A DNA stretch of 64,000 nucleotides, from positions 32,941,382-33,005,381 of the forward strand of contig OY997645.1 in NCBI GenBank assembly GCA_963921795.1, in the 5' to 3' direction. The stretch comes from Nannobrachium achirus. Lineage: Eukaryota > Chordata > Actinopteri > Myctophiformes > Myctophidae. Below are positions 1,159-62,720 of this stretch, piece after piece (the stretch's first letter is position 1; each line of letters opens with the position of its first letter). Under the pieces are notes generated by a model that saw nothing but the letters and a program-made list of their open reading frames with translations, searched no databases and was not told the DNA's origin. A program made the translations under genes and the position numbers.

Positions 1159-1515
1159 TAGGGCTGTCACGATATGACATTTTACATGACGATTAATTGT
1201 CACTCAAATAATTGGCGATTAACGATTTAATTGTGTTTTTGTCGTTGATAATTACATTTCTGTTTGGCTTTTAGGCTTTGAAGTTGTACATGGTAGATTA
1301 TGACACATAACCTAAATATACAAAGAAATTACTGACATATTTGACAACTTACTACTTAAAAAATTACTTTGATAGTGGAAATAGCCGATCTACAAGCTCA
1401 CAACGCGTCGCATCACATTTTTCAACATTCACGATTATGACGATTATGACAAAATAATTGCGATAATGTCAAGTAATCACGATTAGACGATTATGTAATA
1501 ATTGTGACAGCCCTA
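1159..1515. mobile_element. hAT-type MITE, TAGGGCTGTCAC family, copy 1
   Basis: The 357-bp element has inverted ends TAGGGCTGTCAC / GTGACAGCCCTA and perfect 8-bp target duplications AGGAGCAG at 1151-1158 and 1516-1523. An 8-bp duplication is the hAT hallmark. There is no coding capacity. Internally it carries one arm of the dispersed hairpin module (1373-1412). Copies 2-4 are at 10568, 26516 and 39987. Confidence 0.93.
1373..1412 (+). repeat. hairpin module, left arm only
   Basis: The arm reads ATAGTGGAAATAGC then CGATCTACAAGCTCACAACG. The inverted partner present in the sister copy at 40147-40229 is missing. What follows is a short remnant (GCGTCGC) and then the sequence that lies beyond the palindrome in the other copy. 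Confidence 0.85.
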
Positions 1516-2892
1516 AGGAGCAGTTAGCAGTAGCACCGCTCCAAAATAAAGACTGTATGCACACGTGTCAGAGAAAGCTTGCCTAGGGCGCAAATTGGGC
1601 TACATCCGTACCTGCTGATAGTGTGAGGAAAAAGTAAACCCACATATATACACGCTGACCTAATTTTGCCTTTTACGCATTTCAATGGCTTTTTTATGCT
1701 TTGTGTAAAGCACATTGAATTGCATGCCTTTGTATATGAAATGTGCTATACAAAAATAAACTTGCTTTGCCTCAGTGAGAAGTAGGGAAGGTTTGAGACC
1801 TGGAACTCAAGAGTAACCAGCTATGGGGGTGAATAATCTGCAAAAATAGGCTAACATTCAAAAACAGCAAATGTAGATCGGCTATTTTCACTATTTGACG
1901 TACAACGACATGTACGTATGTTTACGTTGTTGATGGATGGGTGTGATGTGAAATTAATCAAAAGCACTCCTACGCAAAGCTTCTATTCACAAACTTTGGA
2001 AGCTGCTTGACTGAATTTAATCTGCTAATGTGTGGAATCTACTGAAATTCTCTTGTCAGCAGCAACCTGACAACAACTTCAAGTTCCTCTATCCATCTTT
2101 GGCCCCCTCTCGCACTCTATCCGCATCTTCCTTCATATTCCTCATTAATTTGAGCAACAGCAGCTGCAGCCAAAGCCCTGGGCCAGAGGTGTCTGTGGGT
2201 GTGTGCGTGTGTGTGAGTGTGCTTTTGTGCGTGCGTGCACACAGTAAATTCCTCCTGGCAGTGACTGTGGGACAAATAAGAAATGGGGAAAAAAGAAAGC
2301 CATAAACTAAATTATCTCCGTTCTGGTTTAGATGCCAAGTCAACTGACAGTGACAGACTGTTGTTGGACAGTGCTGCTGTTGCCATCATCATTAGGATTA
2401 CAGAAGTACGTAAAATACGCATGAAGGAAATATTAATATCAAGATATTAACATTAATACAAAAATCTGCAATTAAATATAACAGTTTAAAGATGTAGTGT
2501 GTGTGTGAAATGTTACACGCTACTATCATGACATACATATTTCCCTGTATCATGCATGCTGGAATTAAACTAGATATTTTCTGGGTTATTACATTACATT
2601 CGGTTTGTATTATTATTATTATTATTATTTAAAAGGAGTTACATTTAACACCAGGTTGTCTCATTTATATGTGGCATCGTTTTCAGCATTGGGGTTTTAT
2701 AAATTAGATGTACACGTATGTTAAACGTTGTCACACAGGGGTTAATATATTGCATTATGTAATGTAGTTGGCATTTCATTGACCCCAAAATTGCACCAGG
2801 GAAGACATAGAATACATTACAGTCGGCAAATTATTGTAATTCTATTCTTCATAGCCTCAACGCATCAATTTAGTTTTTCTTCAAGTGCAACA
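1516..2892. other. no gene recognised; decayed module arm at 1871-1896
   Basis: The stretch contains a lone right-arm fragment of the hairpin module (ATGTAGATCGGCTATTTTCA at 1871-1890), a (TTA)n-like run near 2612-2630, and otherwise unremarkable DNA. I searched the minus strand for the missing C-terminal moonraker exons and found none. Confidence 0.5.
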
Positions 2893-3024
2893 AGGCGCAT
2901 ACCACATACTAGGCTATGATGCCTGCTGGCGTCGCCGGTTCGATTCCCGATCCGGACGACCTTTGCCGCATGTCATTCCCCATCTCTCTCCCCATTTCCT
3001 GTCAGTCTTATCTTAAAAAAAATC
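2893..3024 (+). mobile_element. tRNA-derived SINE (family A), 5'-truncated
   Basis: It contains the polymerase III B-box GGTTCGATTCC (2938-2948) and the body seen in the full copy at 61948-62164, including GACCTTTGCCGCATGTCATT and CATTTCCTGTCAGTCT, and ends in an A run. The A-box end is missing. Confidence 0.8.
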
Positions 3025-3057
3025 ACACCCGTGTGAACTGAGCGGTGGTCGTGTGGG

Positions 3058-3123
3058 GTGTGTGTGTGTGTGTGTGTGTGTGTGTGTGTGTGTGTGTGTG
3101 TGTGTGTGTGTGTGTGTGTGTGT
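3058..3123. repeat. (TG)n microsatellite
   Basis: An almost pure TG dinucleotide run of about 32 units starts about 35 bp after the SINE A tail. Open frames across it are artefacts. Confidence 0.97.
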
Positions 3124-3369
3124 ATTGCAGTTGATGCTCAGGGCAGGCTAGACTCAACAGCACCTCTCTGGTCACCCAGGGTACTCAGGCTACACCAGAG
3201 GCTACATACAGACAGACCCACACACACCGCCACGTATAGGAGCGTTGTGACCACCGCTCAAAAAAAAAAGTGCAATGACTCAAGAGGGGAGCATTTGTGG
3301 GAGTCATTGGTGAATAATGTTTATCAAATAGAAAATAAATAACGATGTATAAGAAGAGGAAAAACCCAC

Positions 3370-3457
3370 CCCATGTCAACAGGTTTCTCCAGCACAATGT
3401 CGGCAGTGGACGTGTGCCTCAGCACCGGCCGGGTTAGCCTCATTGGCTGAGGGGAGC
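3370..3457 (-). CDS. kiaa0753: moonraker exon 16 (last one visible)
   Basis: The exon encodes [14 protein letters not shown] then [14 protein letters not shown], matching the human stretch HPIRITKTV...NIMLERP. Acceptor CCCCAG, donor GTGGGT. It enters in phase 1 and leaves in phase 2, so coding must continue in an exon beyond the left edge or one I failed to see. Confidence 0.8.
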
Positions 3458-61600: not shown

Positions 61601-61604
61601 ACAG

Positions 61605-61732
61605 TGTTGCGCAAAAGTTGTGATCTACAAGTTCACAATGCATTGTGTTCAATGTGTCATGAGCTTATCAATTGGCGATTTTTGCTATTTTTCAAAATGT
61701 TTCCCAAAATAAGGACACCAGGTTGAAAGTGT
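61605..61732. mobile_element. TTAA-family MITE remnant with decayed hairpin H27
   Basis: TGATCTACAAGTTCACAATG CATTG with return AATGTGTCATGAGCTTAT, then CCCAAAATAAGGACACCAGG TTGAAA, the family right end. Confidence 0.65.
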
Positions 61733-61900
61733 TTTTTATTTTATTTTTTATAAATACCAATGAAAAGTATTAACAAGAGCTAGACTACATTGTATCCATT
61801 GGCACACAGGATATTTTATAGTTTTTTCTGAAAAGTCATGGACATACATGTATACATGTAGTACTCTACCTGTTTTCCACCTGACAACAATCATATAACG

Positions 61901-62279
61901 CAGTGGTTCCCAAACTCTCCATAACCCCGGCGCTGCTTCTTATGGGATTTTTTTTTTTTTTTTTTAAGATTTGTTTTTGGGGCTTTTTTGCCTTTATTGG
62001 ATATGACAGTAGACTGACAGGAAATGGGGGAGAGACAGGGAGTGACATGCGGCAAAGGTCGCCTGGATCGGGAATCGAACCGGCGACGCCGACAGGCATT
62101 GATGCCGAAATGGCAATGCCTATATGGTATGCGCCTGGTCCACTACTAGGCCACCAGGCGCCCCTCTTAGATTTATTTTGAAAATCTATGAAATTCTTCT
62201 GAAATGTTTGACCTTTTTTCTGGGGTGGAAAAAAAAACTAATTAGAAATGGGTCCAGACCCAGTGTTTGGGAAACAGTG
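61901..62279. mobile_element. hAT-Charlie-like MITE split by a SINE
   Basis: Ends CAGTGGTTCCCAAAC / GTGTTTGGGAAACAGTG with near-identical 8-bp duplications ATATAACG (61893-61900) and ATGTAACG (62280-62287). The SINE at 61948-62164 interrupts it. It has no hairpin module. Confidence 0.85.
61948..62164 (-). mobile_element. full-length tRNA-derived SINE (family A)
   Basis: The minus strand starts GGGGCGCCTGGTGGCCTAGT with A-box TGGCCTAGTAG (62143-62153) and B-box GGTTCGATTCC (62071-62081). It continues GACCTTTGCCGCATGTCACT and CATTTCCTGTCAGTCTACTG, and ends CAATAAAGGCAAAAAAGCCC plus an A tail (T run 61948-61965). It is not a tRNA gene: no cloverleaf beyond the promoter boxes and a long unrelated body. 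Confidence 0.93.
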
Positions 62280-62504
62280 ATGTAACGTATCTGACCGGCA
62301 GCTCAGGACACTGTATGTCCGCGTGAACTCTCTCACTCTGCTGTCTGCAGTTGTGTGCAAGCTTCCAGTGTGTGGAGGGAACCTTTGGAGGGTGTCCAAG
62401 CACTGAAGGACTCCCGCTCTCCACCATGCCTCTCTCCACACTTCTAGCAGGCAGGCAGGCTCCCTCCCTCTTCCACTGTCTCCAGAGATCACATGACCTA
62501 GGGA

Positions 62505-62720
62505 TCATATCGTTGTGTTTCGGTTGGAAACCTTATATGTCCAAAACCGTTTGTTTTGTATTTATCATTTTGAGAATGATCTTAAAATAGTGACAATTTC
62601 TACAAGCACACAACGCCTCTTAATGCGAGGCGTTGTGTGCTTGTAGATATGCTATTTTCACTAGTTTTGTGAGACAGTCTTGTATGATGAAGCAGGGCTT
62701 TACTTTACAAAAAAAAAAAA
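62505..62720. mobile_element. GTCGGG-family MITE, truncated copy with hairpin H28
   Basis: GGTTGGAAACCTTATATGTC CAAAACCGTTTG and TTGTATGATGAAGCAGGGCT TTAC match 11692-11934; the right terminus is replaced by an A run. The hairpin (62587-62672) keeps the family-specific AAGCACACAACGCCTC / GAGGCGTTGTGTGCTT pair. Confidence 0.85.

What the first reader, a model, noticed from the sequence alone, without database searches (positions are those of the whole stretch)
1373..62672. Dispersed palindromic hairpin module, about 28 copies in 64 kb
A core GATCTACAAGCTCACAACGC, preceded by AATAGC and followed by a CG-rich apex, recurs throughout the window. It is usually followed after 3-5 nt by its inverted copy. 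Good two-arm copies: 3729, 4166, 4747, 11761, 13417, 15663, 38137, 39176, 39329, 40147, 52195, 55737, 57894, 58140, 62587. One-arm or decayed copies: 1373, 1871, 9637, 10737, 11204, 17494, 26643, 34972, 36482, 38770, 56785, 60201, 61618. I know of no named fish element with this core; that is a limit of recall, not proof of novelty. The density and intact folding suggest a mobile or copy-promoting DNA hairpin, a source of structured RNA, or a constraint on hairpin-bearing MITEs.
Basis: partly seen in the sequence, partly recalled or inferred. Interest (0 to 1): 0.9.

Follow-up and report, generated by a model that had tools for sequence, protein, structure and literature searches.

The report
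One hairpin shared by many transposons
A single 77-base DNA hairpin sits, several hundred thousand times in this genome, inside many otherwise unrelated small jumping-DNA families, which suggests that a folded piece of DNA can serve as a common building block and swap point from which new transposon families are assembled.

Summary
The window holds 36 core hits at ≤3 mismatches, 0 expected, and 26 hairpin loci at ≤4. The 1.66-Gb genome holds 471,986 core hits at ≤2 mismatches, reversed control 2. Twenty-five arbitrarily chosen 10-kb stretches hold 79 loci, about 0.57 million genome-wide (bootstrap 0.41-0.73).

The unit is a 77-nt hairpin, usually a 37-position stem with a 3-nt loop and often one mismatch. 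It lies inside short non-autonomous DNA transposons with unrelated ends: hAT-like with 8-bp duplications, TTAA-flanked piggyBac-like, others. Among 15 representatives, flank similarity falls to chance at the stem base, while arms covary.

Some half-elements are joined through the hairpin to different partners; two copies carry arms of two hairpin lineages. I read it as a structural cassette spread between transposons by rare recombination or template switching, then amplified by transposases. Selection for the fold, self-mobility and an RNA role stay open. No constant insertion duplication was found at the hairpin; a few copies lack it, by deletion as far as can be seen.

The parts
3686..4298 (+). 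TTAA-type element (PB2) with two subterminal hairpins (3727-3803 and 4164-4240); ends TTGACCCATTTAGGCC (one base off TTAA) and TTAACCCATTCAGAAC, read inward
3727..3803 (.). hairpin copy, F4 type
   Evidence: folds at -38.5 kcal/mol as DNA; model hit
4164..4240 (.). hairpin copy, F4 type, inverted relative to the first
4605..5048 (-). hAT-like element, 8-bp duplication ATCTACCA, ends CAAGGGTCTTCAAC / CAGGGGCCTTCAAT, with remnants of a TTAA-type unit and a hairpin (4744-4821)
11521..12026 (+). hAT-like element, 8-bp duplication CCTGGTCC, ends CAGGGACGTGCTGG, containing the F3 unit (about 11679-11935)
11762..11838 (.). hairpin copy, F3 type (36 pairs plus one mismatch, triloop)
13166..13614 (+). 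hAT-like element, 8-bp duplication TACTAAAG, ends CAGGGGTCTTCAAC; contains one end of a TTAA-type unit (PB1) and hairpin 13415-13489
15521..15960 (-). hAT-like element, 8-bp duplication AACTAATC; inner TTAA unit 15619-15799 with hairpin 15664-15740
1159..1515 (+). hAT-like element, ends TAGGGCTGTCACGA/TAGGGCTGTCACAA, duplication AGGAGCAG; hairpin reduced to one arm at 1387
26516..26898 (-). same family, duplication TTCTCTGC; hairpin reduced to one arm at 26643
39987..40335 (+). same family, duplication ACCACTGC; hairpin 40146-40230 with an internal arm duplication
38132..38209 (.). decayed hairpin (model E 0.042) in a TTAA-type unit of about 38090-38266, TTAA kept at the right end only
39135..39290 (+). 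156-bp TTAA-type unit with one hairpin (39173-39255, one arm decayed)
39315..39385 (.). shortened hairpin copy
52191..52265 (.). hairpin copy, F8 type (GACCTCC on both arms)
55609..55991 (+). hAT-like element, duplication CGGTAGAC, ends CAGTGGTCCTCTAC/CAGTGGTTCTTAAC; hairpin 55740-55816 (F2 type, CATGC on both arms)
57813..58286 (+). hAT-like element, duplication TCTGTAAT, ends CAGGGGCGTCACA; two hairpins (57892-57968, 58138-58214) of the F4 type also found in the TTAA-type element
62586..62665 (.). hairpin copy, F3 type

Best explanation
The repeated core is half of a discrete 77-nt DNA hairpin cassette (stem of 37 positions, usually a 3-nt loop, often one mismatch 11 bp above the base) that is an internal or subterminal module of many short non-autonomous DNA transposons (MITEs) with unrelated ends. 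Shown: structure, covariation, very high copy number, presence in hosts with 8-bp and TTAA duplications (and probably a 3-bp one), loss of flank similarity at the stem base, and the same half-element joined through the hairpin to different partners. Inferred: the palindrome is a preferred junction for repair or template switching. An extruded or broken hairpin is repaired on another of the many hairpins in the genome, which occasionally gives a chimeric element; a chimera with usable ends is then amplified by hAT, piggyBac or other transposases. Inferred also: within one copy, one arm is now and then copied onto the other, which keeps arms complementary. Exchange is rare and followed by clonal bursts, not continuous.
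For: Cross-family identity is 0.24 at -11 and 0.22-0.40, mostly about 0.25, further out, against 0.38-1.00 from -10 inward (15 representatives). Covariation on 28 chosen hairpins: 26 of 41 pairs change on both sides, 119 cells vs 46.5±6.3 in shuffles, 0 of 500 as high. Genome-wide intact-apex class 26,139 sites: 15,722 are A-T at arm position 11; only 169 are A/A or T/T. Multi-copy half-types with two or more multi-copy partners across the hairpin: T6 with T17 (3 copies) and T7 (1), T7 with T21 (3) and T6 (1), T2 with TTAA-type T8 (4) and hAT-type T14 (4). L047 and L049 each have a CATGC arm on the T6 side and a CAAGC arm on the other. Of copy-level changes in 61 copies, 94 are on one arm, 7 identical on both (0.5-1.6 expected, rough) and 7 different on both; two of the 7 identical ones (L032) are probably one two-base insertion on both arms and two (L025) may be subfamily variation. 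L036 has C->G on both arms (outside that count). In L012 a hairpin is lost symmetrically, 7-8 bases of each stem base left, as expected if it was cut or slipped while folded. 116 piggyBac-type transposase matches were scored (of 952 candidates), most in frames without a stop.
Against: No recombination event was caught in the act, and some examples rest on one to four copies. Mixed arms are 169 of 26,139, so exchange inside the apical arm is rare, or quickly erased. Deletions ≥5 bp are only slightly commoner in the hairpin than in flanks (21 in 2,635 bp vs 28 in 5,174 bp over 31 copies), so fragility of the palindrome is not demonstrated. Most copy-level changes are not matched on the other arm (94 of 108). 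The boundary is not absolute: by eye, F2, hA4 and the CAGTGGCGTCAGTT family share about 10 bp (CACWATTTCTG) beyond the stem on one side, and the latter shares about 36 bp with F2 on the other.
Confidence: 0.5

Rival explanations
1. The hairpin is a cis-acting structural element selected for transposition or maintenance of the elements (a cruciform recognised by a host factor or by transposases), so unrelated MITEs that acquired it outcompeted others.
For: Constant geometry with varying sequence: 13-nt apex in 40 of 61 copies, apex variants CTCGC, GTCGC and GGCAC all occur paired; family-specific pairing at the stem base; hairpin differs less between copies than flanks in 6 of 6 families tested (e.g. 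0.074 vs 0.156 in F3).
Against: Copies were mostly found by their hairpin, so slow change is partly ascertainment; the hA4 family went the other way (hairpin 0.134, flank 0.066; 4 copies, two with damaged hairpins). Copy-level changes are mostly uncompensated (94 of 108). L016:4283-4380 is an F3 copy with both ends and no hairpin, though the loss may postdate its insertion. No factor known; serving hAT-like, piggyBac-like and other ends needs a general function.
Confidence: 0.25
2. The hairpin is itself a tiny mobile element (a TIR-only foldback MITE, or a REPIN-like palindrome moved by an unknown enzyme) that inserts into other MITEs and rides with them.
For: Sharp unit boundary; F3 and hA4 show TA on both sides of GTG...CAC; imperfect hairpin with one recurrent mismatch; 14 of 105 loci have no repeated flank in the sample and could be single insertions.
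Against: No common duplication in 17 representatives; 91 of 105 loci lie in repeated flanks, against 79 of 200 control sites. Host copies without a hairpin exist but none shows a clean empty site: the candidates are decayed; L016 and L009 lost flank with it, and L012 keeps 7-8 bases of each stem base. Flanks beyond the stem are often short inverted rather than direct repeats.
Confidence: 0.12
3. The hairpin works as RNA (small-RNA precursor, dsRNA or silencing decoy) when the MITEs are transcribed.
For: RNA fold of one copy -66.5 kcal/mol, z -16; covariation is what a structured RNA shows.
Against: One Rfam match above its cut-off in the window (Flavi_ISFV_CRE, an F4-type copy); in L029 three F4-type copies match it below cut-off and other copies match various other families weakly, as expected of long stems. 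A triloop is unlike usual animal pre-miRNA loops (recalled). The recurrent C.T or A.G mismatch at arm position -1 is not a wobble on either strand. No strand test was made.
Confidence: 0.1
4. Ordinary nesting: one ancient TTAA-type (piggyBac-like) MITE with a central hairpin inserted into hAT MITEs and was amplified with them; apparent sharing is decayed nesting.
For: True for the CAGGGGTCTTCAAC family, where TTAA units lie inside the hAT-like element, and an element with the same ends but another interior lacks unit and hairpin (L013:9399-9817); the F3 unit likewise lies inside the CAGGGACGTGC element.
Against: In the sampled TAGGGCTGTCACGA, CAGTGGTTCTCAAC and F8 hosts and in F3, F7 and the CCCGGTTTATAC element no TTAA-type end motif was found within 350 bp of the hairpin at ≤3 mismatches, and flank identity between representatives is at chance from -11 outward.
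Confidence: 0.12

Closest known systems
Angel MITEs of zebrafish (Izsvak et al. 1999, not read; seen only through passages of the review PMC12628747)
   Same: MITE of a fish whose single strands pair with themselves in vitro; a model of amplification by strand fold-back and release of a stem-loop was proposed.
   Different: There the element as a whole folds (recalled); here a 77-nt hairpin is one module inside elements with unrelated ends. Sequence not compared (no Angel sequence was available).
Highly conserved domains of SINEs, e.g. the V domain, also found inside the MITE MER6 (PMC6887750, passages read)
   Same: A short conserved module shared by transposable-element families that differ outside it; module exchange is among the hypotheses cited there.
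   Different: Those are SINE domains conserved as sequence; this module is a near-perfect palindrome, covaries, and occurs across DNA-transposon families.
Subterminal palindromes of piggyBac and piggyBat bound by the C-terminal domain dimer (PMC11707139, passages read)
   Same: Palindromes near transposon ends with a role in transposition.
   Different: Those are 14-19 bp and specific to their element; here about 77 bp and present also in hAT-like elements.
Bacterial REP/REPIN palindromes (recalled)
   Same: Very many dispersed imperfect hairpins.
   Different: REPs are intergenic and moved by Y1 transposases; none was sought here, and these hairpins lie inside other transposons.

Membership tests
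hAT-type MITE (host elements) | 8-bp target-site duplication with matching terminal inverted repeats starting CAG/TAG | tested here: met
   e.g. 13166-13614, 11521-12026, 39987-40335, 57813-58286, L044:411-972; found for a part of the loci only
hAT-type MITE (host elements) | mobilised by a hAT transposase with the same ends | not tested
   PF05699 search did not complete
piggyBac-like MITE (PB1, PB2 units) | TTAA on both sides of inverted ends that begin with C | tested here: met
   L013:6567-6777, L008:1399-1607, L006:1447-1604, window 15619-15799; a first base C was required by the script; L037, L051; 39135-39290 (there one end begins with A)
piggyBac-like MITE (PB1, PB2 units) | autonomous piggyBac element with the same ends in the genome | tested here: inconclusive
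Self-mobile hairpin (TIR-only MITE / REPIN-like) | constant target-site duplication at the hairpin boundary | tested here: not met
   17 representatives
Self-mobile hairpin (TIR-only MITE / REPIN-like) | clean empty sites in host elements | tested here: inconclusive
   hairpin-less copies look like deletions; in L012 near 9475 a symmetrical loss with stem bases left; small sample
Known structured RNA | match to an Rfam family above its cut-off in most copies | tested here: not met
   one match in the window, none above cut-off in L029
Angel-type fold-back element | element folds along its whole length | tested here: not met
   pairing ends soon after the stem base in most two-arm copies; left and right flanks differ beyond; L004:1501 and L014:2258 are exceptions
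Already catalogued Dfam/Repbase family | library entry containing the core | not testable with these tools
   no repeat library on hand; 0 papers hold any of four 15-16-nt pieces of the core or its complement

The most novel reading that the evidence does not exclude
A selfish DNA structure: a 77-nt hairpin that propagates from one DNA-transposon family to others of different superfamilies, either by moving itself or by directing strand exchange, and so acts as a parasite or assembly hub of transposons, keeping its arms matched by copying one onto the other.
Probability: 0.25. Interest if true: 0.88.

Novelty: new variant of a known kind. Interest (0 to 1): 0.62.

Why it matters
How new MITE families arise with unrelated ends, and why so many contain palindromes, is to my knowledge largely unexplained. 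Here one structured module spread over about nine end types can be followed at several hundred thousand loci, so rates of arm exchange, arm homogenisation and hairpin decay become measurable. For a rough scale, loci times 77 nt would be about 2-3% of the genome, counting every locus as full length.

Tried and rejected
Single host family: rejected, flanks cluster into 25 multi-copy half-types. Stand-alone hairpin insertion with a duplication: not supported. Hairpin as deletion hot spot: ratio about 1.5, not convincing. Rfam: the one match (58142-58232, Flavi_ISFV_CRE, 42.9 bits vs 41) is taken as a chance resemblance of long stems. Same core in viral or prokaryotic contigs: 0. Species: a guess of snake pipefish, prompted by size, was checked in PMC10795108 (passages read): GC 38.87% against 0.44 in 20 stretches here, so not adopted. 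First comparison of hairpin and flank change failed at its last family (F8) and used flanks beyond the units; its hA4 result (hairpin 0.134, flank 0.066) is against my reading and hA4 was not in the replacement; position -1 was left out; L036 was lost by the grouping. L002, L034 and L005 were dropped (duplicate or tandem copies), L002 also from most earlier counts. L034-L053 were picked by an intact apex, so one search is enriched for intact copies. Papers: seven topic searches (listings seen) showed no description of such a cross-family hairpin; two were for the species. Only the PMC library was searched.
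Full report
WHAT IS THERE. The core GATCTACAAGCTCACAACGC occurs 36 times in the window at up to 3 mismatches; 100 dinucleotide-preserving shuffles gave none. The window lies in a 1.66-Gb assembly in which the core occurs 236,632 + 235,354 times at up to 2 mismatches, against 2 for the reversed pattern. In 25 stretches of 10 kb from contigs 1-15 (positions chosen by hand before seeing them; 231,334 readable bases), 79 hairpin loci at up to 4 mismatches were found, 41 with both arms: about 566,000 loci genome-wide, bootstrap 410,000-726,000. 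The window (26 loci in 64 kb) is about average.

STRUCTURE. Six copies were folded as DNA: 77 nt (75 in one), -29.9 to -44.9 kcal/mol, z -12.9 to -15.1. Four of the six close with a 3-nt loop, one with 5, one with 7. In the best copies 36 pairs and one mismatch, the twelfth position from the base, make a stem of 37 positions; F4-type copies have mismatches elsewhere. As RNA one copy folds at -66.5. In 40 of 61 two-arm copies the cores are exactly 13 nt apart. On an alignment of 28 chosen hairpins (A3), 26 of 41 pairs have changes on both sides, 119 cells against 46.5±6.3 in shuffles (0 of 500), covariation score 0.280 against 0.061-0.077 for slid partners. The shuffles do not correct for relatedness; slid partners do, but favour a palindrome.

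GENOME-WIDE CHECK OF PAIRING. One apical class with two free pairs has 26,139 sites; of the 50 listed (all on contig 1), 49 are complementary at each free pair, with A-T in 26 and T-A in 23 at arm position 11. Counted over the genome: A-T 15,722; A/A plus T/T 169; the other 10,248 (T-A or another base) were not separated because that search did not complete. With independent arms nearly half would be mixed. A second apex class (GCGGCAC...GTGCCGC) has about 34,000 sites (34,355 and 34,173 strand hits). The other positions of these patterns were held fixed, so only otherwise intact hairpins are counted.

HOSTS. The hairpins lie mostly in repeats: 91 of 105 loci (window plus 25 stretches) have a flank repeated elsewhere in 314 kb, against 79 of 200 control sites. 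Hosts with ends: hAT-like with 8-bp duplications (CAGGGGTCTTCAAC, TAGGGCTGTCACGA, CAGGGACGTGC, CAGTGGTTCTCAAC, CAGGGGCGTCACA; CAGTGGCGTCAGTT-like with 10-11 of 14 matching in L035, L041, L043, L045); TTAA-flanked units with inward TTAACCACTTGAACC or TTAACCCATTTAGGCC; a family (F3) with inverted ends CGTCGTTGTCGGG and apparently a 3-bp duplication TAT/TGT (by eye), whose left end alone occurs 28,834 + 29,190 times at up to 3 mismatches; and a near-palindromic element with ends CCCGGTTTATAC, no duplication seen. For many loci no complete ends were found. Superfamily names rest on ends and duplications, which I recall as typical; no transposase was linked to any host. The genome does encode piggyBac-type transposases: 116 scored matches of 952 candidates, most without stops. 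Some hosts are nested: the TTAA unit lies inside the CAGGGGTCTTCAAC element, the F3 unit inside the CAGGGACGTGC element.

BOUNDARY. Between 15 representatives with different flanks, both arms taken, identity per position is 0.38 to 1.00 from -10 to +19 and 0.22-0.40 (mostly about 0.25) from -60 to -11; inside one copy, left and right pair somewhat further, to about -15. So the shared unit ends at the stem base, and families extend the stem by a few pairs of their own. Exceptions, by eye: some hAT-like hosts share about 10 bp beyond on one side and one pair shares about 36 bp. Some representatives (PB1, F6, F14) may be distant relatives.

JUNCTION. I clustered the 60 bp outside each arm into half-types and asked what each is joined to across the hairpin. 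Most families are constant (T3-T4 8 copies, T0-T1 7, T5-T9 6). But T6 is joined to T17 in 3 copies and to T7 in 1, T7 to T21 in 3 and to T6 in 1, T2 to TTAA-type T8 in 4 and to hAT-type T14 in 4 (T23, 2 copies, is a variant of T14). In L047 and L049 (T6-T17) the T6 arm has CATGC and the other arm CAAGC, that is, arms of two hairpin lineages; L007, with the same two half-types, has CATGC on both. In F4 hairpins the outer arm has A at position 3 and A at 13 in all copies of five outer half-types (18 arms) whichever end type is attached, while the inner arms have C and G in nearly all copies of T2 and T10 and A and G in 3 of 4 of T15. This is what joining of halves at the hairpin, with occasional correction of one arm by the other, predicts.

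ARM HOMOGENISATION AND DECAY. Relative to family consensus, in 61 copies, 94 changes are on one arm, 7 identical on both (0.5-1.6 expected, rough), 7 different on both; clear examples L010 -10 G->A, window 15676 +12 C->T, L039 -5 T->C; L036 C->G on both arms was outside that count. So matching of arms occurs beyond chance but most post-insertion change is plain decay. Position -1 varies among C, A and T within most larger half-types (T5 and the F4 types apart) while its neighbours are nearly fixed; I have no explanation. Hairpins differ less between copies than flanks in six of six families, with ascertainment bias, and F2 and F8 rest on three and two copies; hA4 went the other way (0.134 vs 0.066). 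Deletions are not clearly enriched in the hairpin. Hairpin-less host copies exist: an F3 copy with both ends and the middle deleted (L016), a CAGGGGCGTCACA element that lost its second hairpin with about 34 bp of flank (L009), a TTAA-type element with a symmetrical loss that leaves 7-8 bases of each stem base (L012), and an element with CAGGGGTCTTCAAC ends and another interior (L013); the further candidates are decayed hairpins. None is a clean empty site.

READING. The most economical account is a structural cassette at which half-elements are recombined rarely, followed by clonal amplification by ordinary transposases. Selection for the fold and self-mobility are the main alternatives. What is shown is the sharing, the fold, the covariation and the reassorted halves; the act of exchange is inferred.

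RELATION TO KNOWN. Angel MITEs and the fold-back amplification model (review PMC12628747, passages), conserved domains shared by SINEs and the MITE MER6 (PMC6887750, passages), and subterminal palindromes of piggyBac-type elements (PMC11707139, passages) are the nearest I found; the passages I saw do not describe one hairpin shared by transposons with different end types. Seven topic searches of the PMC library found no such description in their listings. Dfam and Repbase could not be consulted, so an existing entry for single host families is likely and not excluded.

Noticed in passing
L005:1457-1620: Four tandem copies of a hairpin half-unit, period about 40 bp (spacings 43, 43, 37): the palindrome has been turned into a small tandem array.
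   Followed up: no
arm position -1: One hypervariable site (C/A/T) inside an otherwise nearly invariant arm; opposite arms are often mismatched there.
   Followed up: partly
L012, about 9456-9500: Symmetrical loss of a hairpin leaving only the stem base (GTGAAAAATATATTTTTG), as after cutting or slippage of a folded palindrome.
   Followed up: no
window 43827-47615 (-): Long open frame (1,263 codons) whose start resembles a LINE endonuclease/reverse transcriptase protein (resemblance recalled, not searched).
   Followed up: no
G000 contig C2:71.35-71.84 Mb: Cluster of many piggyBac-type transposase matches, most without stops, in about 0.5 Mb.
   Followed up: no
window 58142-58232 (-): Rfam match to an insect flavivirus 3' UTR element just over the cut-off; F4-type hairpins in L029 match the same family weakly; taken as chance resemblance of stems.
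   Followed up: partly
L007:1140-1640: Mosaic stretch in which two hairpins lie between pieces of three families (T17, F2 right half, F7).
   Followed up: partly
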